Positions 7,039 through 54,204 of a stretch of 64,000 nucleotides of DNA are shown here, piece after piece (the stretch's first letter is position 1; each line of letters opens with the position of its first letter). This stretch comes from Bolinopsis microptera (taxonomy: Eukaryota > Ctenophora > Tentaculata > Lobata > Bolinopsidae). Both the position numbers and the translations under genes were made by a program. The DNA lies in NCBI RefSeq assembly GCF_026151205.1, contig NC_087078.1, forward strand, positions 17,501,118 to 17,565,117, read 5' to 3'. A model generated the notes under the pieces. The model had not been told where the DNA came from, ran no database searches, and saw only the letters and a program-made list of their open reading frames with translations.

Positions 7039-7043
7039 ACCTG

Positions 7044-14700: not shown

Positions 14701-17653
14701 AATAACTACGAACTGGACATGCAAAGCTCTATAAACACCGCACTCTACATGGAGGTATGTACATTGTAGATTGTACAATTCTATATCACGTGACTCCTTT
14801 TTAAATATCATTTAATTGTTTATGGTGGGAATCAAGGTAATAGCTAATAGCGAGATGAATTAAATTTGTCATATTATGCAATAATGAGCAATGTATATAT
14901 AGTTATACACTGTATATAATATGTATCATTTGTTATTAGTGTGGCTACCTACTGTTATCCGATCTGCAGATCTGAAAAAGGAGCAATTTTTTGTTGTTGT
15001 TGACTGTGTAGTGTCTACTGTTTAATATAACTGTTTAGACTTGGGTGTCGTTGACATATTACGTAATCACTTTTTGAACAATTTTTACCACCCCCCCCCC
15101 GCCCCTCCGTAATCAGCTTTACACATAGGTATTGTGTCAAAATTACACTAGCGTAATCATTTGGAAACCCCCCTCCCCCTCGGCTGATTATGTAATATCT
15201 GAACGACCCCTTACTGTTACTGTGTAATGTGTAGTGCGTTCTGTTTAATGTGCACTGCCGTTTATTATATAACAACAGTTCAAAACAAAAACTGAGGTGT
15301 AATGTGTAGTAAACTGTGCAGTACAGTGTGTAGTACAGTGTGTAGTACAGTGTGTAGTGTGTAATAACAGGAAGTTTTCTGTTTTCTAACGGTACAATGC
15401 TGTCTGCATGACTGTAACAACAATGTTATTGTTTAATAGTAAATAGTGCAGGCTAATGTTTGTAATATAATCACACATTTTTGAGCAGGCATATACCACA
15501 AATATTTATTAGATTTTATCGTGCAATATAAAATAGTTTACATTCTGCGGATAACTTCATTAACAAATTCCTCTAAGCTTATTAAATTGTTGCACCAACC
15601 TATATATGCTATAGAAAGTGAGCTGTCTTTACGAATAAACATTTCTTTTAAACCAACACTTTTCTTTAAACAGGCAATATTGTTATAAATTAAGAAATGG
15701 GGTATTTGTTGTCACTTTATTTACTTTATAAAAACATAACATTCCCCTGGGTCCTCTCTGTCCTGTGTAGATTCTGTAGAAACTGTAAAGCTCAATACAA
15801 ATCCACCCTTCTTCTTTGTCCAATTCGTTGGAATACAAAGATGTATACCTGTAGACTGTTATTATATTTCTTAATAACCGCATTGCGAGAAGTAAACAAA
15901 AAGTGAAATGTTTGAACTACAAATTAGTGTGTTCTTGGTTCTTTGTTAGAACTAGAACTGCTCGATATTTCACTTATACCAAATAAGGTGCAAAAAATGC
16001 GAAATGAAATATTAAATACTTTAGCTATTATATATTCCGCTAGCTATTAAATCTGTCCACCACTACGATAAACCAACACCTAGTCTAACTAAACCTGACT
16101 CAGGTTGGTCTAAAGACAGACTTCACTGAAAAGGAGCTGCAGGATCTGAAGAACTTCATCTCAGTAGTTAGGAGATGTGGTAGCTGGACCCTCGACTACA
16201 AGAAGCAACTTGCTAGGGTTTATAATCCCTTATCTTCAGTTTGTTTTGACATTTAATCTGGATCACCTTATTTATAAGAAGATGACTAGAAATTTATTTC
16301 AATTCTTGATTCTTAACTAAGCGCAGTCATAATATAATGAATTATTGTTTTTGTCCAGGTAAAGAATGGTTTAGAAGATAAAGAAAGTCTGACCAACAAG
16401 GAATGGGCAACTATTCTAGAAGGTGCAACAGAAGCAGGCTTCCCCAGGAACAGCACATTTCTGGGCTGCAAGGGCAGTACTCCCAACACTAGAGGTTACA
16501 CTTGTGGACTCTGGATCTTATTTCACACAATGTTAACCAGGTAACTTATTGTACTAGCTACTCCGATCCTAATTGTTTGTTTTTTTGAACTCTTTCTTTC
16601 TTGATCTTTTATAAACTCCAGGCCCCTTTTCTTGACCAGCTGCTGTCATCCTCTCTTTTCACTATTCAGATCACGTTTTATAATAGCTGTTGTTTTGACC
16701 CCTATTATAACTATAAGGCAAATGACCTGTAATGAGAAGAGTTCACTATTATCAATAATATAGCTTTGTTTATGGTAACTGCTTTGTTATCGCTTTGCGT
16801 ACCTTAAGTGACACTTATTATTAACCACTGTGCTTACACTTTAGCCTAAGTGAGAATAGTCTACTTTCACAAATGATCTGCCAATAATATGGTGCTTACA
16901 CTTAATCGTTATGCTAGCATTACTAGTTAATTAAATTAGTTAATATGTTAGTATTACTAGTTAATTAATTTAATTCGATAAGAACTGATGGAAACTGTGA
17001 AATCATTTGCAAGATATCTACTTTAAATTCTCGCGCGATTGCAATTTAACTGACACGTGTATTTCAGTTGTTACAATGCAGCACCCGGGTCAGTGTCAGT
17101 GTTACACGCTATACACGGCTTTGTGGACTCATTCTTTACCTGTTCATACTGTAGGGACCACTTCTTATCCATGGCAGAGCAGATGAAGCTCCTCAGTATT
17201 GAGGAGGACCAAACTGCTGTTCTAGCGCTTTGGGAGGCTCACAACCAAGTAAACCACCGCCTCAGCACTGAGATACACGATCCTTACTTCCCTAAGATCC
17301 AGTATCCGCCCCGCTCACTTTGCGCCAAATGTTCTGACGATGATGGACAGTTTGACTCGGATCAAGTGTTTGGTTTTCTGATGAGACACTTCCGGAGAGT
17401 TCAGACACCGTTCGGGAGGATGAGGTTAGTCGAGGGGAACCAGACTGTTGTTGATAATGTTGCTGTTAATCCTGTAAAGTATAGAACTCGACATTCTAGC
17501 ATTGTTAACAAGGCAGAAACAAGCGAAGCACGGGGTTTTTCTACTTTTGGTATGTTTGTTTTTGCTATTGTTGGGTTGTTTTTTCTCTTTGTCCTTTTGA
17601 AAAGGAAATTGAGGATTTTTAATTGTAGGAGATTGCCGTATATCGAAGTTTAG
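11722..17653 (+). CDS. QSOX: Quiescin sulfhydryl oxidase (QSOX), 10 exons
   Basis: QSOX forms disulfides in secreted proteins, passing electrons from thiols through a thioredoxin CxxC and an Erv/ALR FAD domain to oxygen. My exons are 11722-11936, 12131-12255, 12393-12478, 13108-13236, 13414-13537, 13653-13783, 14665-14754, 16104-16217, 16359-16540 and 17068-17653. They sum to 1782 nt, an intact frame of 593 residues, near the usual length. All introns are GT-AG. A signal peptide (residues 1-21) is followed by the thioredoxin site WCGHC (C61/C64). The Erv domain has RGYTCGLWILFHTML and the CSYC redox pair (C424/C427). A C-terminal membrane segment ends in basic residues, so a Golgi or cell-surface membrane form is likely. 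The start is supported by the signal peptide; an acceptor-like AG ends at 11719. Confidence 0.93.
15043..15210. mobile_element. MITE with GGGTCGTTCACATATTACG-type termini, copy 1
   Basis: Lies inside QSOX intron 7. The left end reads GGGTGTCGTTGACATATTAC and the right end is its inverted form ending GAACGACCCC. The interior has runs of C and paired GTAATCA blocks. Related copies are at 21721-21836 and 49859-50045. Each is under 200 bp with no coding capacity, so mobilisation must rely on a transposase elsewhere. Confidence 0.8.
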
Positions 17654-19518: not shown

Positions 19519-21123
19519 CTAAGCTCCGGCAGATTTAAAAAGTATATGGTTACTATCAAGGGTGTTCATACCCCCAAACCGTTCAAGGGTTTTCAATTGG
19601 GTCTGGTAGAACCCCTCTCTAGCTTCCATAGCCTTTTCTTTGTCTGCTTTACTAATATTAGGCTCAAATACTAAAGCGTCTACTATAATGACAGAAAGGT
19701 GCTTACTAAGTGAGGAATTATAGGAGGCTATGGTACTAAAATCTAAATCATGATCAATATCTAAAAAATGGTTAACTAATTTACAACTTCTTATACCTTT
19801 CTTTATGTGACTCTTATGGTTAGAGAATCTCTTAAGGAGATTTGAGGTAGTATAACCGACATACGACTGTTTACAAGTCTTACACTCCATTAAATAAATG
19901 AGGTTATAACTCTGACAAGATATATACTTAGTTATAGGGAAAACTTGTTTAGAATGGTGACTACTAAAGTTGGAACAGGGGGACAGGAAATTTTGCTTAC
20001 AAACATAGCATTTACCACAAGCATGGCACCCTGGGTCGACAGCCCCGGGAACCGCCCTTAGACTTTCGGAGTCTGGTTCCTGGATCTGACTTGCAGTTGT
20101 TTCTCTCTCATTATCACAGTTTAAAGTTCCACTGGCACGGTACTTATTGTGTACAAGCATGCCACCGATAGTTTGATTCTTTCGATGACTCACGAATACA
20201 CTGTCCGCACGTACCAGCTTCTTCAGGGCCGGATCAAGGTTGAGAAGGTGCTTATACTTATGGATAATGCCCCCCATGTTGGGAAGTGCTGGATTTTGAT
20301 CCATCACCATGGGTATTAAACAGGCAGTCGACTCATCCTTGTCTTTAAGGGTATACAAGTTTTTCCTATTAGCTATATCACTAAATTTGTTAAAGGCATC
20401 TTCTATAATACTGGAATGATAACCTCGGGCTAGAAGGTAACGTGTATAGACCTCTCTCTGCTCCAAGAAGTTAGTGTCTTCACTGTTGTTCTGTCTCACC
20501 CGCCTCGCCACTCCAAAAGGTATGTTTTTTACAACATGGTTCCTATGGCATGACGTGGGGATAAGGTAGCAGTGGGTGTCACTAGGTTTAGAGTAGAGTT
20601 TGGTGTGGACAACATCACCAACAGCATAGACATAGGTGTCTAGAAACTCAACGCCGTCCCTAGAGTAGTCGTAAGTAAACAAAAGGTTTGGGTGGATACT
20701 ATTGAGCCATTCCATGAATTGTAATAGTTCCTCAACAGTACCGGGCCAAGCCATATAAATGTCATCACGTAATCTACCCCAGAATGCTGGTCTATGAGGC
20801 GGGCCATATTCTAGATCTCCTTCGTTAACTAAGATATCAATCTTATCCATAGCACAATCAGCATACTCACATGAGTTCTTAGGACCCATCGCTGCTCCAC
20901 GCTCCTGGCGGTATGTTATACCGTTAAATGAAGCAATGTTGTAATCAAGAGTAATTTCTAGTGCACTAATAATGCATTCTGTACTAAACAATTGATAACC
21001 ACTACTCCTTTTATTCAGGTGCTTAGTGCATTGTCGGATCCCCATATCCCTAGGAATGATGGTAAACATGTTAGATAGATATATATATATATTGTTCGCA
21101 ATGAAATAGCTGTAGTGTTTCAA
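19519..21123 (-). mobile_element. Penelope-like element, 5'-truncated: RT plus GIY-YIG endonuclease
   Basis: The open frame (534 residues; recognisable homology from about residue 18) carries the C-terminal half of a Penelope-type reverse transcriptase: QERGAAMGPKNSCEYADC (motif B region), LRDDIYMAW (motif C, both Asp present) and GVEFLDTYVY. A Cys-rich linker (CHACGKCYVCKQ) and a GIY-YIG nuclease (YLMECKTCKQSYVGYTT) follow at about residues 410-460. Penelope elements use this pair for target-primed insertion. The fingers and the motif A aspartate, which should lie just before SNMFTIIP, are missing; in their place is an AT dinucleotide run near 21080. The copy is therefore 5'-truncated and cannot encode a working enzyme, although what remains has no stops. 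Confidence 0.88.
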
Positions 21124-21720
21124 TAAGCTGCTTGGTACAATATCTTACGTCTGCTAAATCGGGACATCATGAACTTGGCATATTATATTAGAGAAAGAAA
21201 GTAAGACCACTTTAACAGAATAAGGGGGTCTTAAATAACGAAAATTTGGCCTTCGTAAATTGTGTCGCTCATTGTCACCAACACGTAAACCAACTTTGGC
21301 CAAAGTTAACATTGGCCGAAGTAAGAAAATAAGTAATCTTTTACGTATTACATAGACCAGCCAAGAGGGGAGGGGTTTGAACAAGCTAAAGTGAGTGTTA
21401 TTTATACACATGAGCTATGTTGGCACACGGAGGGGGAAGAGCCAAGAGGGGTCGAAAATCTGGCTTAGGGGTCAAAATCTGGCATACATAATATGTGAAC
21501 GGTCCCTAATTGTATGTCGCCTATTTATAAATCCCTCTGATTACGAATAAAAAGTACCTCTACGTGTCATGATATAACGTGTCATGATTTGATCGTATTT
21601 TCATCAAGAATTAGGAATAAAATGGAAGTCGCGATGCAAGCCTAAATATGCGTTAGCATAGAGTATGAGCGCGCGGCTTTACTTGCGCGCACGCACATTC
21701 TTTAAAATATGTTTGCCTAG

Positions 21721-25259: not shown

Positions 25260-26910
25260 CTAGAAACAATTCAGATCTTTGAAACAGTTTCGAAACTTCT
25301 TTCCTATCTTGATCAATGTCTCTTTTGTCTTTTTGCTAAACCAAAGGTGTACAAATGGTGAGAGGGCAATGGAAAGCAACATGATTCCGTACATTATGTC
25401 CAAAAGTATTTTGTTCTTGGAGTAAAACCAGCTTGGATTTACCAAAGCTGGTATAAAGGGTAGACAAGCTGCCATTGTTATGGCCATAGTAACTATTATG
25501 ATAGCTGGAAATTGAGGGGTCTTTACTATAGCTCCGTCATCGCTGAAACCACCTTGCATGATTGCTTTATTTCTTGTACTTCTTAACAGATTCGCATCAT
25601 CATTATCTTGCTCTGTATTAACTGTAGAAAACGTAGAGACTTGAGTCAAAGGCAAGAATCGACTTTTCCTTGCTTCTTGTTTCTTTTTATGTTCCACAAC
25701 TTTCAGCCCTATGAGAAAGAACATAGAAAGGTTTAGCAGTAAAGGCAGTACTAGGACAACTGAAATCCATGCAACAATGAAGTAGGTGTATTCGCCTCCA
25801 TTAAAGTTACAGAAGTTCCGTGTTGTTACTAGATGTTCAAGCATTTCCTTAAACCATAATATTGGGGAAGACACTACCACCACGAAAGCAAACGATGCCA
25901 GACACCACATCAATTGCTTTTTCACTGTTGTCATTTCCAGTTTTCCCACTGGGAATCGTATCAGAATGAACTTGTAGAGAGTCATCAAGAAGTTGGCAAA
26001 AGACAAACATCCGATTGCAACCAAAGACAAGAACCAAGAAAGCTTACATGTTGACTCTGTCACATTGCTAACAATTGCAAATATGGCTGCCCCAATAATC
26101 ATTAGATTTGCTGTTGAGTACCATAGTTGTGTGACATACGCAAACAGTAGTTCTCTGTTTAGATATGCTATGATAACCTGGCAGAGAACTCCAATCAGAA
26201 GAATTCCTGGAGTAGAATAGTACATTATCAGTGTTACCTCCAATTTCACTGTCTTTGGTTTCTTTTCACCACCTACTGCAGCTGCTTCTGTCACTTCTTT
26301 TTGGGGAGTTTCTGTTACAACATTTGTTCTGTTATATTCCATTTTATCGTTATCAGTCTCCTTATTATGAATATCCTCAGCTTCTGTTGGATCAATCTGG
26401 GATGTTTCTGCTGGTCCAGTCTTTTGATCACTGTCCTTGGTTTCCTTATGGGGCTCGGTTACAATTGGTGGTTTCGTTTTCACCTTTGGAGGGTCGGTCG
26501 GGTCTTTTTGAACAGGAGTTCTTGACAAAACTTCAGGTTTGAGAAAGATTGCTGCTGTGATCACTTCGAAATCACCCTTTTCAAACTTCCCGTTTCTTTC
26601 TAGCACACTTTTCCCATGGACTGAACCCTGCAATAAGAATGGTGCTTTGTTCATATTAAGTGAAACAAATTTGATAGTGAAACAAATGTTGAATTCTATC
26701 CTAGTAACATTCATAGGTGTTGATAGTTTTAAGAATTAATCACTTTCCTGCTTAACCAAAAGCACGACCTAAGCTTTGCTGAACATATTATTGATAGAGG
26801 TTACCTACAACTTACATTAATACTCATTTAAAACAGTAAATGTTGATATTACTTACATGAATGAAGGCTAGCCAGAGGGCTATGTGGAGTATTCCACATC
26901 GCAATTTCAT
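25260..26910 (-). CDS. Seven-transmembrane receptor-like protein, two exons
   Basis: Exon 1 (26857-26910) encodes a signal-peptide-like start, MKLRCGILHIALWLAFIH, with a GTAAGT donor. Exon 2 (25260-26627) begins after a TTATTGCAG acceptor in matching phase, giving 473 residues. A Thr/Pro/Glu/Lys-rich extracellular stalk precedes seven hydrophobic segments. TM3 ends in TLYKFILIRFP, at the place of the DRY region of rhodopsin-type GPCRs. A long third intracellular loop follows TM5, and TM7 has LSPFVHLWF where NPxxY is usual. The tail is short and basic. The fold suggests a diverged orphan GPCR; the ligand is unknown. The in-frame ATG at 26714 was not used because it lies upstream of the acceptor, in what reads as intron. 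Confidence 0.72.
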
Positions 26911-27738: not shown

Positions 27739-29308
27739 TTGTTAAACTCACCGATATAATGAAGCTCCTGCTGAAGATTGTAGATATTACAGTTATGCTT
27801 AAGTTTTGAAGATAGTTTGAAAAAAAGTTTATAAGTTTCCACAATTAAGTTATTTTCTTTTCTTTTAATACATTTTATAATCAATTGTTACTTTCAGACT
27901 AGGCCGGAAAATATTTAAAGTTAGATTTAAAGTTAGACATTTTTTAGTTTGTATTTTATAGTGTTAAAGTTAATCTAATCCATACATACATTTACCATGG
28001 GTTGTAGAATGTAGATAATGTTTTGTATATGTTTTTGTCAGAGCTTCGACTCTGAGATCCCTTCTGGTAAGGTAGAGTCTAAGATATAACTATATAGTAT
28101 AACTCTCTCGAGTTAAATTTGAAAGTGATCAAAGTAATATAAAGTTATGTATGCAGTGCATGTAGCATGATTTTATAGGCATATGCATGTTTTATCACAA
28201 TATAATACTCCAATTATTGCATGAGATATTATTCTCTACTCTGTAAGAACAGCTGGGGCAAGAGCCAAGAATTGATCACGCTTTTTTATGAAGCACTATG
28301 ACAAGCTTATGTTCAAGCTAGAATTGCCGAATTGGCGATACCTAACATTTTTTGAAAATGGTTTCCATGGTGCTACACACATACCGCACCAAATTCTTGT
28401 GTCAGATCTTGCCTCAGTTCGATAAAGATGCTGGACAGCATCTTGAGCCATTAAAATATCAAACTATAATCGTCTATTATCGCATCCCTTTTTTATCGAT
28501 ATATATACTATTATAGCATCATTATATCGGGTTATATCATATTATCATCATTTCCATCGGTATATGGAAGCCAAAGATTTTTCGTTTCATATTTGGGGTT
28601 TTTGAAAACGTTTGACAATTTTGACAAGTATTCGGTAATTTTTGTAAGCCGAAGATAAAAAGATTTTTTAGATTTTATAAGTACCGTGTACACCAAGTAA
28701 AATGTAATATAAATGTTCTTTATATTATTGTATGATAATATTATATTCATGTATTGAAAAGAACGTTCGATTATTGCTTTGTCTTTACTGCTATGCACTT
28801 GATCAAACTGAATTTAAGTTCATTGCATGTTCTGGTTACTGGTTAGCTATATTTAAATTAACATGGTGATCCTGAAAAGATTCGGGCTGGATTCGTTACG
28901 ACCGTTTGCCCATCATACTCATTGAACTTTCCAAGAAATGAGACAGCTAGGAAAGTTTTAATTTATCAGCTGAAAAAAACTGAAAAAAATCGCGATTTGT
29001 CACGAGGTCAGGATCGGATCTGAAAAAATCGCGACTTGTTGCTAGGTCAGGATCTGAAAAAAATCGTGATTTATCGCGGCAAACGTGAAAAATCGCGATT
29101 CTGCACATGCCGCAATTTCCTTTTTGTCCTTACCCCGAAAATGTTTCGAAATTCAGGCTTTGGCCTGAATTTCAATTATGTGTATTTTTGCCCTTCTTCA
29201 TCGAGAGTGCAAAGTATTCGCACCAAACGAATAAGAGTATCATAAATTTGTGACTACTCAGTGTTGAATCCACCACTTTGACCTTTACTACCTTTTTCAG
29301 GTTCAGAA
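27739..29308. other. No gene recognised; AT-rich spacer with one tandem repeat
   Basis: Bases 28978-29075 hold nearly three copies of a roughly 36-bp unit containing AAAAATCGCGA and GGTCAGGATC. The following CGCGATTCTGCACATGCCGC-type sequence recurs at 59031-59070, so it belongs to a dispersed family. A short inverted repeat around GAAATTCAGGC/GGCCTGAATTTC lies near 29148-29173. The end of the segment carries the acceptor-like CTTTTTCAG in front of the next gene. Confidence 0.5.
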
Positions 29309-30587
29309 ATGGATAAATTTCCCAATCCGGACATGATGTTGGTAGGATTTCTCGCACAAGCTGCTCTGTCAAGTCTTCTGATATCTTCCATAGCTAGCAA
29401 TCATCGTGGTTGCTCATGGAATGCGGGAATGTTTTGGTTGCTGCTTATCGGGCTGTCTGCAATAGTGGCTTTCTTAACGTACATTAAAAGCAAAGACAAA
29501 AAGTTGGTTCAAGGACTAGTTTCTTTTGCAGGATCTTTCATTCTCAACCTAAGTGGCGATTTTCTTGGAATGTCAGCATTTACATGTTTCACAGATACAG
29601 ATACAGCGAAGATACAGCGAAGCCGCACCATCTACATGTATTGCACGATCCCGATAATGGCACTAGCTTCGCTACTAATTGCCATGCACTTCCTCAAAGA
29701 AACAAATCCACAAGCATCTGCAGAAAATACCAAACTGCCGAACCCAGAAGTGATTCTTCTTGGGGTTTGTGTTCAGTGTTTTATTGGAAAGTGTGTGAAC
29801 GCTATTGAATTTGACAGCCTTTGGGTTTGCATAGGAAACGGATTCGGATTATGGCTGGAGCTTACGATTGTGTCAGTCATCCTCGCCGTTTTAACTTATA
29901 AAAAAACTGACAACCAATTTATGTTACATCGATCATTGCTATTGCTAACATTTGCCTGCTCATTTATCATTAGCTTGAGTTCATCAAATGTAGGTTTCTG
30001 GTCACTTGCCTGTTCATTTTTATTATGTTTATGATTGTGTTTTCGAATATTATTATTTGTTCACGTCCATCATTAATGGGGTAGCTGCTCTGGTTATCGT
30101 AGTCATATTCCTGAGGAAGAATGTCTCTGCTCCTCAAAATCTAGCAGCTCAAAGTCTTCAAGCTGGTGATGCTCCTAAAGCTCCCTCTTACCCGCCACAA
30201 GCATCCTACCCAGCTCCAGGGCCCCACCCGCCACAAGCATCCTACCCTCCACAAGCATCCTACCCAGCTCCAGGATCCCACCCGCCACAAGCATCCTTCC
30301 CAGCTCCAGGGTCCTACCCGCCACAAGCATCCTTCCCAGCTCCAGGGTTCTACCCGCCACAAGCATCCTACCCAGCTCCAGGATCCCACCCGCCACAAGC
30401 ATCCTTCCCAGCTCCAGGGTCCTACCCGCCACAAGCATCCTACCCAGCTCCAGGGTCCCACCCGCCACAAGCATCCTACCCAGCTCCAGGGTCCTATCCG
30501 CCACAAGCATCCTACCCAGCTCCACCATCTTACCCAGGTCCTAACTATCCTTTAGTCAAAGATTCTCTTCCTGTCGTGAGCAATTGA
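29309..30587 (+). CDS. Duplicated four-TM membrane protein with Pro-rich repeat tail; one frame break
   Basis: I do not recognise the family. Two homologous modules of about 125 residues begin FPNPDMMLVGF and LPNPEVILLGV, and each has about four hydrophobic segments. The first reading frame ends in a stop at 30032-30034. The frame one base later continues the last helix of module 2 (LFTSIINGVAALVIVVIFLR) and runs through the tail to 30587. The break lies near 30015-30030 beside a run of T, so a sequencing error, a real frameshift or an unusual small intron are all possible. The tail has about ten 11-residue repeats of the PPQASYPAPGS type, probably cytoplasmic and disordered. AATAAA at 30629-30634 suits its 3' end. 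An acceptor-like AG ends at 29300. Confidence 0.65.
30181..30530 (+). repeat. 33-bp coding minisatellite
   Basis: Roughly ten tandem units containing CCGCCACAAGCATCCTACCC, in frame with the membrane protein and encoding PPQASYPAPGS-like repeats. Third-position and Ser/Tyr/His variants distinguish the copies. Copy number is likely to be polymorphic. Confidence 0.85.
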
Positions 30588-32636: not shown

Positions 32637-35600
32637 ATAAAGGGGGGGGGGGGGGGGGGGGTGACATGTCTCCAATGTCTCCCGCACCTTATCTTTTCGA
32701 AAAAGACAAAGACATTGGAGACATTGGAGACATTGGAGACATTGGAGACACAGCTTTTGGAGACATTGGAGACATTTGGGACATTTGGGACATTGGGGAC
32801 ATTAGAGACACAGCTTTTGGAGACATTGGAGACACGGCTTTTGGAGACATTGGAGACATTGGGGACATTTGGGACATTGGGGACATTAGAGACACAACTT
32901 TTGGAGACATTGGAGACACAGCCTCCTCCTCCTCCTCCTCCTCCTCCTCCTCCTCCTCTTCCTCCTCAGTCCTCCTCAGTCGTTCTCCTCCTCCTCCTGA
33001 GTCCTCCTCCTCCTGAGTCCTCCTACTCCTCTTCATCCTCCTCCTCTTCCTCCTCAATCATCAGTCCTCCTCCTCAGTCCTCCTCCTCATCTTTCTCGTC
33101 AGTCTTCCTCCTCCTCCTCAGTCCTCCCCAAGTCCCCCTCCTCCTCAGTCCTCCCCTAGTCCCCCCTCCTATTCAGTCCTCATCCTCCTCCTCCTCAGTT
33201 CTCCTCAGTCCTCCTCCTTCTCAGTCCTCCTCCTGAGTCCTCTTCCTGAGTCCTCCTCCTGAGTCCTCCTCTTCCTGAGTCCTCCTCCTCCTAGGTCCTC
33301 CTCCTTCTCCTCCTCCTCCTCCTCCTCAGTCCTTCTCCTCCTCCTCCTCCTCCCTCTCAGTCATCCTCCTCAGTCATCCTCCTCAGCCATCCTCCTCAGC
33401 CGTCCTCCTCAGCCATCCTCATCAGTACTCCTCAGTCCTCCTCCTCAGTCCTCATCCTCCTCCTCAGTCCTCCTCCTCATCCTTCTCCTTAGTCCTCCTC
33501 TTCCTCAGTCCTCCCCAGTCCCCCTCCTCCTCCCATTCACTCCTCCTCCTCCTCCTCAGTTTTCCTGAGTCTTCCTCCTGAGTCCTCCTCCTCCTCCTGA
33601 GTCCTCCTCCTGAGTCCTCCTCCTGGGTCCTCCTCAGCCATCCTCCTCAGTCCTCCTCAGTCCTTCTCCTCCTCCTCAGTCCTCATCCTCATCCTCCTCT
33701 TCAATCCTTCTCCTCCTGGGTCCTCCTCCTCCTCCTCCTCCTCCTCCTCTTCCTCCTCAGTCCTCCTCAGTCGTTCTCCTCCTCCTCCTGAGTCCTCCTC
33801 CTCCTGAGTCCTCCTACTCCTCTTCATCCTCCTCCTCTTCCTCCTCAATCATCAGTCCTCCTCCTCAGTCCTCCTCCTCATCTTTCTCGTCAGTCTTCCT
33901 CCTCCTCCTCAGTCCTCCCCAAGTCCCCCTCCTCCTCAGTCCTCCCCTAGTCCCCCCTCCTATTCAGTCCTCATCCTCCTCCTCCTCAGTTCTCCTCAGT
34001 CCTCCTCCTTCTCAGTCCTCCTCCTGAGTCCTCTTCCTGAGTCCTCCTCCTGAGTCCTCCTCTTCCTGAGTCCTCCTCCTCCTAGGTCCTCCTCCTTCTC
34101 CTCCTCCTCCTCCTCCTCAGTCCTTCTCCTCCTCCTCCTCCTCCCTCTCAGTCATCCTCCTCAGTCATCCTCCTCAGCCATCCTCCTCAGCCGTCCTCCT
34201 CAGCCATCCTCATCAGTACTCCTCAGTCCTCCTCCTCAGTCCTCATCCTCCTCCTCAGTCCTCCTCCTCATCCTTCTCCTTAGTCCTCCTCTTCCTCAGT
34301 CCTCCCCAGTCCCCCTCCTCCTCCCATTCACTCCTCCTCCTCCTCCTCAGTTTTCCTGAGTCTTCCTCCTGAGTCCTCCTCCTCCTCCTGAGTCCTCCTC
34401 CTGAGTCCTCCTCCTGGGTCCTCCTCAGCCATCCTCCTCAGTCCTCCTCAGTCCTTCTCCTCCTCCTCAGTCCTCATCCTCATCCTCCTCTTCAATCCTT
34501 CTCCTCCTGGGTCCTCTTCCTCCTCTTCATTCTCCTCCTCTTCCTCCTCAGTCCTCAGTCCTCCTCCTCATCCTTCTCGTCAGTCCTCCTCCTCCTATTC
34601 AGTCCTCCTCCTCCTCCTCCTCAGTTCTCCTCAGTCCTCCTCCTGCTCATTCCTCCTAAGTCCTCCTCCTGAGTCCTCCCCCTCTTCCTCCTGAGTCCTC
34701 CTCCTGGTTCATCCTCCTCCTAGTTCCTCCACCTTCTCCTTCTCCTCCTCAGTCATTCTCCTCCTCCTCCTCCTCAGTCATCCTCTTCAGTACTCCTCAG
34801 TCCTCCTCCTTCTCAGTCCTCCTCAGTCCTCTTCCTGAGTTCTCCTCCTCCTCAGTCCTCCTTCTGGGTCCTCCTCCTCCTAGGTCCTCCCCCTCCTCCT
34901 CCTATTCACTCCTCAGTTTTCCTGAGTCCTTCTCCTGAGTCCTCCTCCTGAGTCCTCCTCCTGGGTCCTCCTCCTCCTAGGTCCTCCTCCTTCTCCTCCT
35001 CAGTCCTTCTCCTCCTCCTCCTCAGTCCTCCTCCTCCTCCCTCTCAGTCATCCTCCTCAGCCATCCTCCTCAGTCCTCCTCCTCCTCAGTCCTCATCCTC
35101 ATCGTCCTCTTCAGTCCTCCTCCTCCTGGGTCCTCTTCCTCCTCTTCATCCTCCTCTTCCTCCTCAGTCCTCCTCCTCATCCTTCTCGTCAGTCCTCCTC
35201 CTCCTCAGTCCTCCCCAGTCCCCCTCCTCCTCCTATTCAGTCCTCCTCCTCCTCCTCAGTTCTCCTCAGTCCTCCTCCTTCTCATTCCTCCTAAGTCCTC
35301 CTCCTGAGTCCTCCCCTCTTCCTCCTGAGTCCTCCTCCTGGTTCATCCTCCTCCTAGTTCCTCCACCTTCTCCTTCTCCTCCTCAGTCCTTCTCCTCCTC
35401 TCCTCCTCAATCATCCTCTTCAGTACTCCTCAGTCCTCCTCCTTCTCAGTCCTCCTCCTTCTCAGTCCTCCTCAGTCCTCTTCCTGAGTTCTCCTCCTCC
35501 TCCTCCTCCTCAGTCCTCCTTCTCGGTCCTCCTCCTCCTAGGTCCTCCCCCTCCTCCTCCTATTCACTCTTCAGTTTTCCTGAGTCCTTCTCCTGAGTCC

Positions 35601-36647
35601 TCCTCCTGAGTCCTCCTCCTGGGTCCTTCTCCTCCTAGGTCCTCCTCCTTCTCCTCCTCAGTCCTTCTCCTCCTCCTCCTCAGTCCTCCTCCTCCTCCCT
35701 CTCAGTCATCCTCCTCAGCCATCCTCCTCAGTCCTCCTCCTCCTCCTCAGTCCTCATCCTCATCGTCCTCTTCAGTCCTCCTCTTCCTGGGTCCTCTTCC
35801 TCCTCTTCATCCTCCTCCTCTTCCTCCTCAGTCCTCAGTCCTCAGTCCTCAGTCCTCCTCCTCATCCTTCTCGTCAGTCCTCCTCCTCCTCAGTCCTCCC
35901 CAGTCCCCCTCCTCCTATTCAGTCCTCCTCCTCCTCCTCAGTTCTCCTCAGTCCTCCTCCTTCTCATTCCTCCTAAGTCCTCCTCCTGAGTCTTCCTCCT
36001 CTTTTCCTCCTGAGTCCTCCTCCTGGTTCATCCTCCTCCTAGTTCCTCCACCTTCTCCTTCTCCTCCTCAGTCCTTCTCCTCCTCCTCCTCCTCCTCAGT
36101 CATCCTCTTCAGTACTCCTGAGTCCTCCTCCTTCTCAGTCCTTTTCCTGAGTTCTCCTCCTCCTCCTCGTGAGTCCTCCTTCTGGGTCCTCCTCCTAGGT
36201 CCTCCACCTTCTCCTCCTCAGTCCTACTCCTCCTCCTCAGTCCTTTTCCTCTTCCTCCTCCTCCTCCTCCCTCTCAGTCATCCTCCTCAGCCATCCTCCT
36301 CAGCCATCCTCCTCAGTAGTCCTCAGTCCTCCTCCTTCTCAGTCCTCCTCAGTCCTCTTCCTGAGTCCTCATCCTCCTCCTTCTCCTCCTGAGTCCTCCT
36401 CCTGGGTCATCCTCCTCCTAGATCCTCCTCCTTCTCCAATCATACATCTACGTCTCCAGTGTCTCCAATGTCTCCAATGTCTCCAAAAGCTTTGTCTCCA
36501 ATGTCTCCAATGTCCCCAATGTCTCCAATGTCTCCAAAAGCTGTGTCTCCAATGTCTCCAATGTCTCCAGGACATGTCTCTGCACCCTATCTTTTCAAAA
36601 AAGACAAAAGACATTGGAGACATTGGAGACATGTCACCCCCCCTATA
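32637..36647. repeat. 4-kb pyrimidine-rich satellite flanked by inverted GGAGACATT arrays
   Basis: The core (about 32926-36435) is almost pure C/T with AG interruptions, built from TCC and TCCTCAGTCC words. There are higher-order copies: a nearly identical 791-bp direct duplication (for example 32981 against 33772), then units of about 635 and 680 bp (a shared TCCTCCTAAG at 34651, 35286 and 35968). The left flank (32695-32925) is a GGAGACATT array and the right flank (36450-36640) is the same array in the opposite orientation. The outermost ends also match in inverted form: TATA, a G-run, then GTGACATGTCTCC on the left and its complement on the right. The long open frames here are products of the repeats, not genes. 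Confidence 0.9.
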
Positions 36648-43807: not shown

Positions 43808-46800
43808 TTAGTAAGTGTATCGATAAGGGCACGATCTATAAGTTGGGTAGTTGTAGCGGTAGGGACAGTAGCTGTATCCGTAGGTGCTGGCTCTTCCAAG
43901 AGTGCTGCCTGCTCCTGATCCTGCTGAATAGCAAGGGCGATAGTAGTAGCAGGTGCACCCTCCTGTTCCTCCGCCTCCACCTCCGCCTCCTCCACCTCCG
44001 TTTCCTCCTGGTCCTCCTCCTCCACCTCCGTTTCCTCCTGGTCCGCCATTACCTCCCGGGCCTCCGCTACCACCGTCACCTCCGTTCCCGCTTGGTCCTC
44101 CATTGCCTCCTGGTCCGCCGGAACCATTCGGGCCTCCTGGGCCGCCAGATCCTTTATGGACAGGACAGTTGTTAGGAGTTTGTGCTCCACATGGGAATCC
44201 TCCGGGGCCGTCTCCACCTGGACCTCCTGGTCCTCCATCACCTCCTGGGCCTCCAGGTCCACCTGGACCGCCCGGCCCACTTGGGCCTCCAGGTCCACCC
44301 GGACCGCCCGGCCCACTTGGGCCTCCAGGTCCACCTGGACCGCCCGGCCCACTTGGGCCTCCGGGACCTCCATGAAGTGGACAACCTCCTGGTCCACCAT
44401 CACCTCCAGGGCCACCATCTCCTCCAGGACCACTTGGGCCTCCGGGACCTCTCTGAAGGGGATAGAATCCTGGACCTCCTGGACCACCTGGTCCACCATC
44501 GCCTCCGTCTCCCCCAGGTCCACTTGGGCCTCCGGGACCTCCATGAAGGGGACAGAATCCAGGGCCTCCTGGACCACCAGGCCCTCCTGGGCCACCTGGT
44601 CCACCTGGTCCTCCGGGATAGAAAGGACTGCTTCCCGGTCCATAAGGACTGTAAGGCCCGAATGGATCATCTTCAGGTCGGATTGGCTTTTTGCACGTTC
44701 TACACTTGCCATTTGGTGACTTTTTGCCACGTTTACCTGGTTTTTTAGAAGGCCCACAGCAGCCTCCATCATTGGAACCATTTGAAGAAGGTTCACTACT
44801 CTGTCCGCTTGGTCTTCTTCCACCTGGTCCTTTTGGACCACCATCTGATGGGTTACCTGGATTTGAGTCACTGTTTTTGGGTTTCTTAGGCTTTATACAA
44901 CAGCAACATGTACCATCACTATCTGGGTCAGAGTCAGTTGGATTGGAACCATTCGAATTATCTCCGGAGTTTGGACTCCTTTTCTTGGGTTTCTTGCCAT
45001 TCGGGTCAGAATCCTTAGGGTCATCTCCTGACTTTGGTCCTCCGTTTTTAGGTTTTTTATCATTTGGACCTTTTTTAGGTTTCTTTTTTCCACAGCACCC
45101 GACCGGCGCCGTTGCATCGGAGGGATCACTGGAAACACTCGTACCTGATGTAGTGCTTGGTCCTGATGTTGTGCTTGGTCCTGATGATCCACTGGATCCA
45201 CTTGTTTTTGAAATCGGTTCACCATCATCGGGTGATCCACATCGTGGGCAAGCACCTCCGTCTTTTGGTCCATTAGGATCAAGAGGTCCTCCCGGACGGA
45301 ACGGATTTCTTGCATCGTTTGGATTGTTAGGGTCGTACGGTCGATTTGGGCTATTTGGATCAAGTGGACCTCCTGGTCGGAAAGGATTTCTGGGGTCATT
45401 GGGATCTTTTGGATCATAAGGTATGTTGGGATTGTTTGGATCCAACGGTCCGCCTGGTCTGAATGGGTTGTTTTGGTCGTGTGGATTGAAGGGATCATAA
45501 GGTCGGTTAGGGTTGTTTGGGTCAAGTGGACCACCAGGTCTGTAAGGATTCCTGCAGTCGTCTGGGTTGTGAGGGTCGTATGGTACATTAGGGTTGTTCG
45601 GATCCAAAGGACCCCCAGGTCTGAATGGATTGTTCGGATCATTAGGATTGGCCGGGTCGTACGGACGATCAGGATTATTTGGGTCCAACGGACCACCTGG
45701 TCGGAAGGGATTGTTTGGGTCATCCACATCATAAGGGTTATAAGGCTTGTTGGGATTATTTGGATCCAATGGTCCCCCTGGTCTAAATGGATTGTTTGGA
45801 TTAGTTGGATCGTACGGGTTATATGGTTTCTTCGGATCATTAGGGTCATAAAGTCCCCCAGGACCGAATGGATCACCACCTGGACCTACTGGACCATGCC
45901 GACGACCACAAATGGGGCATTTTGGTCTTTTGCCTCCTGGACCTCCTGGACCGCCAGGCCCACCTGGACCTCCTGGACCTCCTGGACCGCCAGGTCCTCC
46001 GGGTCCACTGCCATCTGGGCAACGTCTGGGCTTTCTATTATTTGGTCCGTTTGGATCATTTGGTCCGCTTGGACCACCAGGACCTTTTGGTCCGCCTGAG
46101 TTTGGATCGTCTCCGTCTGATGGCGTCTTAGGCTTTCCTTTCTTCGGTTTTTTCTTTCCGCAGCATCCAACATCAGAATCGTCAGAACTTGAAGGAGATG
46201 ATTCATTGTCGCCATCTTTTGGATTTCTCCCTGAATCTGTTGTACTAGTTAGCCCAGTTCCTGATGTTTTTGAAGTTGCAGAAGAGTTTGTAGAGCCAAG
46301 TATGCTGGATAGTCCGGAGGAAGTGTCGTCATCGCTTGTATCAGGGTCTCCTTTCTTTCCCTTCTTTGGTTTCTTTCCTTTCTTTGGTTTCTTCTTACCG
46401 TTCTTCGGCTTTTTCGGTCCAAAGCATCCAAAACACCCGTCTGGTCCGCAACAATCTCCACAACACCCATCTGGTCCACAAAGTTTAGGGCAGCACTTTC
46501 CACAGCAACCATCAGGCCCACAGCATTTTCCACAGCATGCATCAGGACCGCAAAGTCCGCAACATCCACCTGGGCAACAACCATTAGGTCCACAACATGG
46601 ACCACAGCACCCATTGGGACCACAGCATCCTCCATTGTCATCATCATCACCATCATCTTCTGGAGAGCCAGGTAAGCCTAGACCACAGTGAGGGCACTCT
46701 TCAATTGGATTATCCTTTCCTTCTGATCCATTTGAACTTGCAGGTCCTTTGGGATCCTTTGGCTTTTTGGGACCACCGGGTCCTTTTGGATCCCTTGGGT

Positions 46801-49793
46801 CTTTGGGACCCCCAGGTCCTTTCTCATCCTTTGGTTTTTTGGGACCCCCGGATCTTTTCGGATTCCTTGGGTCTTTGGGCCCGCCAGATCCTCCGTGGAG
46901 AGGACAGTTATCAGGATTCTTTGCTCCGCACGGATTTCTTCCGGGACCTGATGGCCTTTCAGGACTACTGTTGCCACTGGAACCCCCGGGCCCAACAGGA
47001 CCTTCAGGACAGTGTAATGGGCAGTGCAATGAACACCCTGGTCGTTTTGGATTACCAGATCCGTCTGGTCCTCCTGGTCCGTTTGGGCCGCCAGGCCCAC
47101 CTGGACCTCCGGGCCCACCTGGACCTCCGGGCCCACCTGGACCGCCAGGTCCTCTGGGTCCACTGGGTCCACTCCCATCTGGGCAACGTCTGGGCTTTTT
47201 ATTGTTTGGATCATTTGGTCCGTTTGGACCACCTGGACCGCCAGGCCCACCTGGACCACCAGGCCCACCTGGACCTCCTGGCCCACCTGGTCCTCCAGGT
47301 CCACTGCCATCTGGGCAACGTCTGGGCTTTTTATTATTTGGTCTTGGACCTCCACATCCACAACGAGGACAATAACCGTGAGGATGATTAATTGGAACTT
47401 TTGGTCGACTCGGTCTTTTACTACCAGGTGCATTTGGATTACCATTCGGGTCATTGAGTGGATCAAGCGGCCCTCCTGGTCGGAACGGATTTCTGGGGTC
47501 ATTGGGATCTTTTGGATCATAAGGTATGTTGGGATTGTTTGGATCCAACGGTCCTCCTGGTCTGAATGGGTTGTTTTTGTCGTGTGGATTGAAGGGATCA
47601 TAAGGTCGGTTAGGATCGTTTGGATCAAGTGGACCACCAGGTCTGTAAGGATTCCTGCAGTCGTCGAGGTTATGAGGGTCGTACGGACGATTAGGATTAT
47701 TTGGGTCCAATGGAGCACCAGGTCGGAATGGATTGAGTGGGTCATCCATATCATAAGGGTCATAAGGTTTGTTGGGATCATTTGGATCCAATGGTCCCCC
47801 TGGTCTGAATGGATTATTTAAATCGTTTGGATCGTATGGGTTATATGGTTTCTTTGGATCATTAGGATCATAAAGTCCCCCAGGACCGTATGGATCTCCT
47901 CCTGGACCCCCAGGTCCTCCTCGACCACCTGGTCCTCCTCGACCGCCAGGTCCACCACGACCACCTGGTTTGCCACAATGATTGCAAGGGACTTTAACAA
48001 TGGAATATCCTGGACATGGCCTCCCGCTAGTTCCTGTTGGACCTCCGACTCCGCCGGGACCACCGGGTCCTCTTGGACCTCCCGGACCACCTGGTTGTCC
48101 TGGTGCCCCTGGTTGTCCCGGTGCACCTGGTTGCCCTGCTCCACCGGGAGCACCCGGACCTACTGGGTAACAGCCTGATGGTGCACCTGGTTGTCCTGGT
48201 TGTCCTGGTGCACCCGGTTGCCCTGGTGCACCTGGTTGTCCTGGTGCACCTGGTTTTCCTGCTCCACCGGGAGCACCCGGACCTACTGGGTAACAGCCTG
48301 ATGGTGCACCTGATTGTCCTGGTGCACCTGGTTTCCCTGGTGCGCCTGGTTGTCCCGGTGCACCTGGTTGTCCTGGTGCACCGGTAGCACCCGGACCTAC
48401 TGGGTAACAGCCTGATGGTGCACCTGGTTGTCCTGGTGCACCTGGTTGCCCTGGTGCACCTGGTTGTCCCGGTGCACCTGGTTGCCCTGCTCCACCGGGA
48501 GCACCCGGACCTACTGGGTAACAGCCCGATGGTGCGCCTGGTTGTCTTGGTGCGCCTGGTTGTCCTGCTGAACCTGGTTGTCCTGCTGAACCTGGTTGTC
48601 CTGGTGCGCCTGGTTGTCCTGCTCCACCGGGAGCACCCGGACCTACTGGGTAACAGCCTGATGGTGCGCCCGGTTGTCCTGGTGCACCTGGTTGTCCTGG
48701 TGCACCTGGTTGTCCTGGTGCACCTGGTTGTCCTGGTGCACCTGGTTGTCCGGCTGCCCCATGACAGCCTGATGGTGCGCCTGGTTGTCCGGCTGAACCT
48801 GGTTGTCCTGCTGAACCTGGTTGTCCTGGTGCACCTGGTTGTCCAGCTGCCCCATGACAGCCTGATGGTGCGCCTGGTTGTCCTGGTACGCCTGGTTGTC
48901 CTGGTGCGCCTGGTTGTCCGGCTGAACCTGGTTGTCCTGCTGAACCTGGTTGTCCAGCTGCTCCATGACAGCCTGATGGTGCGGCTGGTTGTCCTGGTAC
49001 GCCTGGTTGTCCTGGTGCGCCTGGTTGTCCGGCTGAACCTGGTTGTCCTGGTGCACCTGGTTGTCCAGTTGCTCCATGACACCCTGATGGTGCGCCAGGT
49101 TGTCCTGGTACGCCAGGTTGTCCTGGTGCCTGATGGTGCACCTGGTTGTCCTGCTGAACCTGGTTGTCCTGGTGCCCCATGATGATTATGATGTGTGTGA
49201 TGGTGACGATAATTCACAGCACCTGGCACTTGGATCACTTGAACACTGGGAGAAGTGGCTGAACCTGCTGGAGAAGGGACAGTAGCCGATCCTAAGCTAG
49301 TTACCGACACTCTTCCCGCTGGTGCTTGACTTATACTGTAGGAAACTGCGGATTGCTGGACTCCGTAAGAAACTGCACCTGCAGGCTGAACGCCGTACGA
49401 AACAGCAGCCGGTTGCTGAACGCCGTACGAAACAGCAGCTGGTTGCTGAATACTGTAGGCCACATTGGCTGCAGGCTGTTGACCATTGTAAGACACACTC
49501 ACTGCAGGCTGCTGAGCAGTGAGGCCTACATTAGAGAGATTATAGCCCCCTGCTACTGCTCCAGGAACACTGATCACATTAGCGCCTCTTGCTGCTAACC
49601 CAGGAACACTCATCACATTAGCGCCCCCTGCGGCTAAACCAATCACATTAGCGCCTCCAGCGGCTGCTGCTCCGGTGGTGTAAGATCCTCCAACTCCGCT
49701 AATACTCGAAAAGTTGCTGAGAGATGAGGCACCTGATATCGCTCTGTTTCTGGCTCCGTTCACATCTATACTCACATTACTGGCCCCATACAT
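43808..49793 (-). CDS. Giant Gly/Pro-rich modular structural protein, with one frame break
   Basis: About 2,000 residues, not matched to a named family. In order: an Ala/Val/Gln-rich region with repeats like [10 protein letters not shown]; a His cluster ([11 protein letters not shown]); collagen-like G-X-Y ([13 protein letters not shown]) broken by SGCHG and [20 protein letters not shown] arrays; two blocks of [12 protein letters not shown]-type repeats of about 24 residues; a double-Cys array ([10 protein letters not shown]); KKPKKGK patches; CxxC pairs (CPRC, CPIC, CPHC); and a Gly-rich end finishing in a Tyr/Cys tail ([20 protein letters not shown]). The N-terminal part (49793 to about 49128) is in a different frame from the rest. 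The first ATG is MYGASNV; an acceptor-like CTCCCAG ends just upstream, so a signal-peptide exon may be missing. A secreted matrix, capsule or fibre protein is inferred. Confidence 0.7.
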
Positions 49794-49858
49794 AGTGGGG
49801 GCTGGGAGTAGAGCGTTATATTGGTGACATTTAGTGCAAATTACAATAACAACATCAA

Positions 49859-50045
49859 GGGGTCGTTCACATATTACGTAATCACTTTTTGGCAAATTTT
49901 TAACAACCCCCCTCCAATCTCCGTAATTAGTTTTACACATAGCTATTCTGTAATGTGTTCATATTACACTTGCGACTTGCGTAATGATTTAGAAACCCTC
50001 TCCCCCGAACCTTTCAGTGATTACGTATTATGTGAATATTTCGAG
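49859..50045. mobile_element. MITE with GGGTCGTTCACATATTACG-type termini, copy 3
   Basis: Left end GGGGTCGTTCACATATTACG; right end a degenerate inverted form (GATTACGTATTATGTGAATA). The interior keeps the C-run and the GTTTTACACATA block seen in the copy at 15043-15210. It sits directly upstream of the Gly/Pro-rich gene, where it may contribute to or displace its 5' region. Confidence 0.8.
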
Positions 50046-52180: not shown

Positions 52181-53590
52181 TCATGCCTCCTTTTTGTAGT
52201 GATCTACGACCTCGGATATCAGAAAGAATAACTCTTGGATAGTTGGTTGCAAAATGAGCATAGCTATGCCACATTTAGAGAGCCCAACATCAAGTGCTAT
52301 AAACCTAATCAAAAGGTCACATTTAGTGGTAATGTGGATTTGCTCGATTCCATATATCTCAAAATCAAATGAGAAGCAATCGATTGGTGCTGCTACATAA
52401 ATGATCAGCACAATCAAATCAAAAATGATTTCTATCGAGCAAGATATCATGGTTTTCTTGATGTTCGTAGTATCAGACTTTCCCACGTCTTTGTTGTTGT
52501 TCTTGCAATAGCCAATCAGGAAAAACATACTCAGGAAAAGTGAGCCGACGTAGCCGACTGTAGTGAGTGATGTCAGGGCCAACTGCCAGCTGGCAGCCCG
52601 AGCCTCTATTCCATTACAGGACTCCTGGAATTCAAACAGCAGAATCATGGACCAACCTATGAAAGTTGCAAACATAACTACTGTTTGGCCCAGAGATATT
52701 CGTAGTAACCACCTACTGAAGCCTTTCCTATGCTCTCGAAAGTAGAACGGTCGGTAGATCATAATGTTTTGAAAGGAATAGATGATAACAGTGAAGACCT
52801 TCAAACTCATCACAAAAACCTTCAAAATCACGGTGACAAGGCACCTTATCACGACAAAAATCAGTTTGGCCGGGAATGTAGGTTGAATAGAAACGTCACG
52901 GGAATACTCAGGTACTATGGTCAATATGCCAACGATGATGCACCAGATGGAGTAAGATACCCTTGTCACTTTAACGACCCCTTTCTGAGAAGAAGCCCTC
53001 AGTTTGACTACGATTCCTACCAGTCCGATCAGTAGAGTTAGAGCTCCCTGTATGTAGTACACATAAGGAGCAGAATAATGTCCTCCATCCATGATAGTGT
53101 ATCCAGAAGTGGTCCCGTTGAAGTTAACTGTTTTGGAGTCATTAGCTGCTTTTTCCCAAAGAATCTTAAATGCCTCATCGTTTTTTAACTGTTCCCTAAG
53201 ATCTTTATGCATAAAGAACAACTCGATATCAACATTAAGATCTTCATCAGAGAAGTGTTTGCGACTTATCCCGTTTTCAAGGAGCTCTTTAGTAATGTCC
53301 CATTCTGCGAAAACTTTATCTCCCTCGTGCACTATAACTTCAAATGTGTCAGGTGTCTTTTTGTGGTCAAAGTCTGCGCCTTTTGTTTTGGAGAGTAACT
53401 CCTCGAACCACTTCAACGTATCCATACTCATAGATTGTGGAGCTGTCGACTTCAGGCTCAGCCCAACAACGCTCAAAGATATCGATTTAGAAATATTAAA
53501 GCGTAATAAATTAAGAGGTTGTAAAACTCGAGATAACGCTTTATCTAAGTATCTACAATTGCAAGCTTGCCGAATGACGGGTAGAATCAA
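52181..53590 (-). CDS. Second seven-transmembrane receptor-like protein
   Basis: An extracellular N-terminal region of about 170 residues (DTLKWFEELLSKTKG ... GGHYSAPYVYYIQ) is followed by seven hydrophobic segments. TM3 runs into NIMIYRPFYFREHRKGF, in the position of the rhodopsin-type DRY region and similar in shape to the LYKFILIRFP of the 7TM gene at 25.3-26.9 kb. A short cytoplasmic tail ends DHYKKEA. I infer a diverged orphan GPCR-like receptor; the ligand is unknown. The start is uncertain: the open frame begins at 53590, but MSMDTLKWF (near 53430) after a Ser/Leu-rich stretch is also possible, and a signal-peptide exon may lie upstream. A decayed partial copy lies at 54205-54475. Confidence 0.68.
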   Translation of the reverse strand: MILPVIRQACNCRYLDKALSRVLQPLNLLRFNISKSISLSVVGLSLKSTAPQSMSMDTLKWFEELLSKTKGADFDHKKTPDTFEVIVHEGDKVFAEWDITKELLENGISRKHFSDEDLNVDIELFFMHKDLREQLKNDEAFKILWEKAANDSKTVNFNGTTSGYTIMDGGHYSAPYVYYIQGALTLLIGLVGIVVKLRASSQKGVVKVTRVSYSIWCIIVGILTIVPEYSRDVSIQPTFPAKLIFVVIRCLVTVILKVFVMSLKVFTVIIYSFQNIMIYRPFYFREHRKGFSRWLLRISLGQTVVMFATFIGWSMILLFEFQESCNGIEARAASWQLALTSLTTVGYVGSLFLSMFFLIGYCKNNNKDVGKSDTTNIKKTMISCSIEIIFDLIVLIIYVAAPIDCFSFDFEIYGIEQIHITTKCDLLIRFIALDVGLSKCGIAMLILQPTIQELFFLISEVVDHYKKEA

Positions 53591-54204
53591 AAAGAATCAA
53601 AATAATAAAGGCAATAAATCAAATAAGGTCTGATAAGTCTGTTTATTGTTACAGCAAAATCTTTTTGCTCTACGGAGCGTCTCGTGGTGCGAGACAGCCA
53701 ATATTAGTACATTTAATATTTCTAAATAAAATTATAAAGTGGAAAGGTCAAATGAGAACCAACCAGGTCACTCGATCGTATTGAAAATGAGCTACAAGAA
53801 TATTTTATAAAATATTATTTATGCCACTCGTACAGAAAATTAGCTGCAAAACCAAAAAAATGCTGCAAGAATACGCTCCCGCTAAATTGCTCGCCCAAAT
53901 TTTAAGAAAATTCTTGTGAAAAGGCCCTGAGGGTATGAAAATTAAAAGTAATCTAACTCGGTGATTCCGAATCACCCCCATGACGTAGGGTAAAAATTCT
54001 TCCCTGACAGGCTGAGCGCCGCCCAGTAAATTTCGTCATGTTTAAAATATAATATAGTCATAGATATTTGGCACGGAGTATTAGTATTGTTTTGTACATA
54101 TCATGATACGGATCGTTTGCCCGCCATTTTGATTGTTTCAATTTGTTCGAATAATAAAAAGATTGATGTATGTACTGAGCCATTCCTATAATCAAGAAAA
54201 TAAG

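What the first reader, a model, noticed from the sequence alone, without database searches (positions are those of the whole stretch)
43808..49793. Large modular Gly/Pro structural protein of unrecognised family
One gene combines collagen-like G-X-Y, GGPGGP arrays, [12 protein letters not shown] repeats, a double-Cys array (CCGPNGCCG), CxxC pairs, Lys-rich patches and a Tyr/Cys C-terminus. I know no family with this combination. The double-Cys and CxxC content suggests disulfide or metal cross-linking, and the Tyr tail suggests oxidative cross-linking. A new extracellular or capsule biomaterial is plausible, but this is inference.
Basis: partly seen in the sequence, partly recalled or inferred. 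Interest (0 to 1): 0.75.

Follow-up and report, generated by a model that had tools for sequence, protein, structure and literature searches.

The report
Orphan comb-jelly structural block protein
A genome that is very probably a comb jelly's carries what looks like a real gene for a huge glycine/proline-rich building-material protein made of collagen-like, cysteine-rich and tyrosine-rich blocks; it matched no catalogued family in the searches made, and whether it is secreted or stays inside the cell is still open.

Summary
On the minus strand, 43808-49180 is an unbroken 1790-aa frame with every module described. The genome (264.65 Mb, contig C1 26.2 Mb) fits the ctenophore Bolinopsis microptera; a ctenophore-type spliced-leader array and a Mnemiopsis-like glutamate-receptor segment support this. 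Twelve 27-aa [11 protein letters not shown] units differ mostly at silent sites (pS 0.77, pN 0.16), so the protein sequence is under selection. The N-terminal, Cys-array and Tyr-tail modules had no convincing second copy in the genome; only the GXY stretch resembles collagen, below Pfam's cut-off. Structure models were uninformative. No signal-peptide exon was found upstream, so secretion is unproven. Best reading: an orphan cross-linkable structural polymer, probably secreted or granule-stored; rival: an intracellular Cys-rich structural protein. New variant of a known kind; function not shown.

The parts
43808..49180 (-). main open frame, 1790 aa from ATG 49180; the frame is open back to 49213
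49128..49793 (-). N-terminal frame, 222 codons, MYGASNV...: Ala/Ser/Gly/Val-rich with [10 protein letters not shown] repeats, running into [17 protein letters not shown]; out of frame with the main ORF
49802..49803 (-). AG of a splice-acceptor-like site CTCTACTCCCAG|CCCCCACTATG, exon start 8 nt before the ATG; could be a cis or a spliced-leader acceptor (inferred)
   Evidence: leader trans-splicing in ctenophores, PMC8527503
49179..49205 (-). histidine patch HHHTHHNHH just before the collagen-like block, in the N-terminal frame
48029..49123 (-). collagen-like GXY block in the main frame ([10 protein letters not shown]...), kinked by [14 protein letters not shown] Cys units
47894..48028 (-). 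linker with [15 protein letters not shown] and GGRGGP
47459..47863 (-). first block of five 27-aa [11 protein letters not shown] units
46664..47413 (-). GGP arrays, CPRCG, RRCPDG, CPLHGG and Lys-rich GPKKPKD segments
46421..46627 (-). double-Cys array CCGPNGCCG...
45884..46408 (-). Lys-rich (KKPKKGKK), Ser/Asp-rich and GGP segment
45275..45841 (-). second block of seven 27-aa units; the two YDP regions are 88% identical where aligned
44594..45223 (-). Lys/Ser/Cys segment ([19 protein letters not shown])
43994..44593 (-). GGP/GGD/GGN array with CPLHGG motifs
43811..43993 (-). Gly run and Tyr/Cys C-terminal tail ([10 protein letters not shown]...CPYRYTY), then the stop codon

Best explanation
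A gene of a ctenophore, orphan in every library that could be searched, encodes a multi-block structural polymer. Shown: the frame, the modules, the protein-level selection on the 27-aa repeats, and the lack of a convincing second copy of three of its modules in the genome. Inferred: most of the chain is extended or disordered; the GXY block forms short kinked collagen-like or polyproline-II helices; GGP, Asn-Pro-Asp and Lys/Asp blocks act as hydrated spacers; Cys knots (CCGPNGCCG, CPxCG, CPLHG), the His patch and the Tyr-containing N-terminal part and Tyr-rich C-terminal end join chains by disulfides, metal or Tyr oxidation into a tough, water-swollen material. The likeliest setting is a secreted or granule-stored material such as tentacle glue, egg coat or mesogleal fibre; which of these is not known.
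For: Open frame of 1801 codons against at most 449 in 200 Markov copies. The 12 repeat units, pooled over 66 pairs, give pS 0.77 and pN 0.16; two stretches compared between the two blocks give pS 0.28/pN 0.07 and pS 0.24/pN 0.11, the second including a few end residues that are not in register. Variable columns by codon position are 13, 9 and 27 of 27 each, and 14 of 27 residues are invariant. Composition 27% Gly, 22.5% Pro, 4.4% Cys. AlphaFold2 gives mean pLDDT 43.8 for the repeat block (2 sequences) and 48.5 for the Cys array (1 sequence), as expected of a disordered polymer but also of a missing alignment. An AATAAA lies about 370 nt past the stop. N-terminus, Cys array and C-tail match themselves plus 7, 1 and 1 other places, best E 3.8e-4, 0.81 and 0.44.
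Against: No signal-peptide exon was found upstream: none with donor score 7 or more in the matching phase and a hydrophobic core, and none that I find convincing when relaxed. The assembled gene carries a frame change near 49,128. No transcript or protein data are at hand. A published screen of colloblast and tentacle candidates found no enrichment for low-complexity sequence (PMC6278862, section 8 read).
Confidence: 0.6

Rival explanations
1. An intracellular Cys-rich structural protein, working like the Cys-Gly-Pro proteins of sperm tails or keratin-associated proteins (recalled analogies): made in the cytosol from the ATG at 49793 without a signal peptide, then hardened inside a cell or cilium (sperm or comb-plate structures).
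For: No signal-peptide exon found. An acceptor-like site lies 8 nt before ATG 49793, and this genome has spliced-leader-like genes, so the mRNA could start there. 8 CGP and 17 overlapping CC.
Against: Collagen-like GXY, the His patch and the Tyr tail are more typical of secreted materials (established knowledge). The exon scan is crude and can miss a distant first exon. The literature search for the CGP analogy found 490 papers with two of three terms; the 8 listed show no occurrence of Cys-Gly-Pro.
Confidence: 0.25
2. A broken copy: an indel shifted the frame near 49,128, and the assembled haplotype no longer makes the full protein, or the indel is an assembly error in repeats.
For: The N-terminal and main frames disagree inside the repeats and no simple intron joins them under the thresholds used.
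Against: The 1801 codons of the main frame stay open, and the repeats bear strong protein-level constraint, so any break is recent or artefactual. No second copy of the N-terminal part was found.
Confidence: 0.12
3. Not a gene: a G+C-rich tandem-repeat tract that happens to be open.
For: The region is full of tandem repeats, and several genome hits to it are simple or tandem repeat tracts.
Against: Silent-site excess among the 27-aa units, third-position excess (0.22, 0.135, 0.535 by codon position), and several non-repetitive segments.
Confidence: 0.03

Closest known systems
Collagens, including collagen frames of the same genome (L042, L043, L049)
   Same: Gly every third residue, Pro-rich, over about 350 residues
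   Different: Pfam collagen score 23.4, below cut-off, against 51, 146 and 670 bits in the three genome frames tested; no C4 domain found; 0.9% Lys/Arg and 0% Asp/Glu in the GXY part against 13.6% and 11.0% in L049 and 5.2% and 17.2% in L043
Mussel byssal preCols (recalled)
   Same: collagen-like core with Gly-rich, His-rich and Tyr-containing blocks
   Different: no signal peptide found here; Cys arrays and [11 protein letters not shown] repeats are not part of preCols as I recall them; no sequence comparison was made
Cnidarian minicollagens (recalled)
   Same: short GXY with Cys-rich parts
   Different: the minicollagen Cys pattern CxxxCxxxCxxxCxxxCC is absent; this protein is far longer than minicollagens as I recall them
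Sperm-tail CGP proteins such as ODF1 and Drosophila Mst(3)CGP (recalled)
   Same: repeated Cys-Gly-Pro, possible cytosolic start
   Different: far longer, with GXY, Tyr and Asn-Pro-Asp blocks; not compared by sequence
Collagen-like fibril protein of PDB 8zxl/9ius ('spindlefibril | axialfibril'; source organism not shown)
   Same: GAPGxQGAPG-type repeats
   Different: match confined to the GXY block; each stretch printed scores 104-107 bits with a bias of 271-274

Membership tests
Collagen superfamily | Pfam Collagen (PF01391) at or above the curated cut-off | tested here: not met
   23.4 bits against 27.2
Collagen superfamily | long uninterrupted Gly-X-Y | tested here: inconclusive
   collagen-like Q/A/P runs of at most 12 triplets; longer runs of 13 to 22 triplets are mostly Gly-Gly-Pro type
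Collagen IV | C4 (NC1) domain | tested here: not met
   only Collagen listed for the window protein; C4 found in L042 by the same tool
Minicollagen | CxxxCxxxCxxxCxxxCC domains (pattern recalled) | tested here: not met
   0 matches in the main frame
Secreted matrix protein | N-terminal signal peptide | tested here: inconclusive
   no plausible exon in about 2.4 kb upstream with matching phase; a crude consensus and hydrophobicity scan, so a distant or unusual exon is not excluded
Byssal preCol | sequence homology to preCol flanks | not tested
   no preCol sequence was compared
CGP sperm-tail proteins | expression in sperm or cilia and cytosolic location | not testable with these tools
   only the motif count was made: 8 CGP

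The most novel reading that the evidence does not exclude
A ctenophore-only multi-block polymer that combines collagen-like, silk-like GGP, zinc-knuckle-like CxxC, double-Cys and Tyr-sticker blocks in one chain, made without a signal peptide and hardened inside a cell or cilium: a structural material of a kind that, as far as I know, has not been described in animals.
Probability: 0.15. Interest if true: 0.8.

Novelty: new variant of a known kind. Interest (0 to 1): 0.5.

Why it matters
Ctenophores are among the earliest-branching animals, and what their glue and other structural materials are made of is poorly known: a screen built on transcriptomes of 36 ctenophore species did not find strong support for homology to known adhesives (PMC6278862, abstract and section 8). 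A gene with such strong repeat conservation is a concrete, testable candidate for one of those materials, and a template for block-polymer design.

Tried and rejected
Paralogues: the whole-protein search listed 58 matches. Two of them are the other strand of this window, and the gene itself was not among the scored places, so that list is only a lower bound. Eleven regions behind hits were fetched and their long frames read together with L003: eight look like collagens (L042-L046, L049-L051; Pfam was run on three of them, L042, L043 and L049), three are repeat tracts (L047, L048, L003), and L052 is a frame not followed up. L001, L002, L004, L021 and L022 are tandem or simple repeats by their frames. 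L007 lies inside the collagen frame of L049; one search listed no frame there because frames that run off the end are not listed. L010 and L028 were read and show nothing like the modules. The other hits and loci were not inspected. The repeat-block search gave 138 matches, of which the four best are in this gene.

Conserved fold: two AlphaFold2 jobs gave low confidence, so no fold search was made.

Relatives elsewhere: the repeat-block query matched short patterns at 5 places in viral contigs and 64 in prokaryote contigs, none confirmed by tblastn. Other ctenophore or animal genomes are not held, so orthologues could not be tested.

Literature: searches for NPFRPGG (0 papers), for ctenophore with glycine-rich, proline and adhesive (0) and for 8ZXL or 9IUS (0) found nothing. 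In the listings for colloblast (23 listed of 25), mesoglea collagen (20 of 40) and comb plate (10 of 60) no title or abstract start names such a protein. Papers opened only as passages: PMC10232365, PMC11797021, PMC11184263, PMC5395295.

Rejected: cnidarian capsule protein (ctenophore-like genome; minicollagen pattern absent).

Full report
WHAT IS THERE. The minus strand holds an open frame from 49213 to 43808; from the ATG at 49180 it gives 1790 aa. The stretch up to 49793 is in another frame: MYGASNV... through an Ala/Ser/Val-rich part with [10 protein letters not shown] repeats and a His patch into [17 protein letters not shown], after which the reading leaves that frame near 49,128 and the main frame takes over. 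No intron with reasonable signals joins them (0 solutions).

IS IT A GENE. The longest open frame in 200 Markov copies of this stretch was 449 codons (mean 213). The 12 repeat units differ mostly silently: pooled over 66 pairs pS is 0.77 (saturated, so no ratio is given) and pN 0.16; two stretches compared between the two blocks give pS 0.28 and 0.24 against pN 0.07 and 0.11, the second with a few end residues out of register. Differences by codon position are 0.22, 0.135 and 0.535. Pairs are not independent, but all 27 third-position columns vary against 9 second-position and 13 first-position columns. The GXY units give weaker support: 0.11, 0.02, 0.13 for four PSGCH units and 0.05, 0.02, 0.08 for five PSGCY units. 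An AATAAA lies about 370 nt past the stop. I conclude that the protein is, or was until recently, under selection.

WHOSE GENOME. The window is G000:C7:17501118-17565117; the assembly has 264,652,675 bases in 232 contigs and contig C1 is 26,206,493 bases. A published table gives Bolinopsis microptera 265 Mb, 13 chromosomes, largest 26.2 Mb (PMC11797021, passages); it also lists 346 scaffolds, which does not match 232. A glutamate-receptor ligand-binding segment from L034 has three PDB sequences of Mnemiopsis ML032222a as its best relatives (118.8-119.7 bits, next receptor 82.9), although the two whole receptors tried hit vertebrate-type kainate receptors best. That ML032222a is from Mnemiopsis is recalled. 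A pattern from the end of the leader of the ctenophore Hormiphora (PMC8527503, section 37 read) occurs 352 times with up to one mismatch, against 64 for the reversed control; 36 of the 100 places listed form a tandem array of about 591-bp period on C3. The four copies printed carry CTTTCAACACTACTATATAACAAATAATTTGAG|GTAAG, close to the Hormiphora leader. Ctenophore is thus well supported; the species name is inference.

RELATIVES. Pfam: Collagen at 23.4 bits, below 27.2. NCBIfam: a bacterial collagen-like adhesin at 30.8 against 325. PDB: 31 sequences at E 0.01 or better, most of them named collagen; the best, 8zxl, is a simple GAPGLQGAPG repeat with bias 271-274 against 104-107 bits per stretch, so not evidence of kinship. 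In the genome the N-terminus, the Cys array and the tail match themselves plus 7, 1 and 1 other places (best 3.8e-4, 0.81 and 0.44); the places behind the first and third of these values were read and show no such module. The 27-aa repeat block gives 138 matches, of which the four best are this gene; the others that I read are tandem repeats or collagens. Three collagen frames of this genome score 51, 146 and 670 bits, and the two whose composition was counted are charged.

SECRETED OR NOT. An acceptor-like site lies 8 nt upstream of ATG 49793. Scans for an upstream exon with a signal peptide gave nothing with donor score 7 or more, a hydrophobic core and the right phase. Relaxed scans gave candidates inside the upstream 7TM-like gene, in tandem repeats, or without a usable donor; I find none convincing. 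One signal-peptide-like stretch, ATG at 50245, runs into a stop and its only listed donor is in the wrong phase. Trans-spliced leaders are on 56% of Hormiphora Iso-Seq reads, which the authors call a lower bound (PMC8527503), so the mRNA may simply begin at 49801. Without cDNA this is open.

HOW IT MAY WORK. Inferred: a block polymer. Neutral kinked GXY and GGP segments supply extended or polyproline-II chain; Asn-Pro-Asp repeats and Lys/Asp patches supply hydration and ionic contacts; Cys arrays, CPxCG pairs and the His patch supply disulfide or metal links; Tyr residues near both ends supply stickers or oxidative links. Models of the repeat block and the Cys array were of low confidence (pLDDT 43.8 and 48.5), which fits disorder but does not prove it. 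A secreted or granule-stored material is favoured by composition; an intracellular hardened structure is the main rival. The published colloblast and tentacle candidate sets were not enriched for low complexity (PMC6278862, section 8), so glue is only one option.

VERDICT. A real, unusual, orphan structural-protein gene in what is very probably a ctenophore, with a frame problem at its 5' end and no functional data. New variant of a known kind; interest 0.5.

Noticed in passing
G000:C3:13511055-13533403 (L057 holds part): Tandem array, mostly 589-592-bp spacing, 36 copies among the 100 places listed, carrying a ctenophore spliced-leader-like exon followed by GTAAG; no Rfam family matched the fetched 6 kb at gathering score.
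   Followed up: partly
window 3694-9113 (-): LINE-like retroelement: reverse transcriptase and endonuclease (3694-7080) beside a frame with a 2OG-Fe(II) oxygenase (AlkB-type, name recalled) domain and a PHD-like finger below cut-off (7044-9113).
   Followed up: partly
window 19519-21144 (-): Frame with a GIY-YIG nuclease domain; probably a Penelope-like element (name recalled).
   Followed up: no
window 32922-36437: 3.5-kb strongly strand-asymmetric CCT-type repeat tract.
   Followed up: no
window 17054-17653 (+): Erv1/Alr sulfhydryl-oxidase domain fragment, about 26 kb from the Cys-rich gene; no link shown.
   Followed up: no
window 52181-53596 (-) and 25260-26735 (-): Two frames that look like multi-pass membrane proteins; the first has no Pfam match, the second matches 7tm_1 just below cut-off.
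   Followed up: no
window 29282-30587 (+): Membrane-protein-like frames, no Pfam match for 29282-30034, followed by a 36-bp tandem repeat coding PPQASYPAPGS-type units.
   Followed up: no
window 49830-49960 and 15015-15425: Short similar stretches (KSDYVICE/QR in translation) that look like a dispersed mobile-element remnant; one lies just upstream of the gene's acceptor-like site.
   Followed up: no
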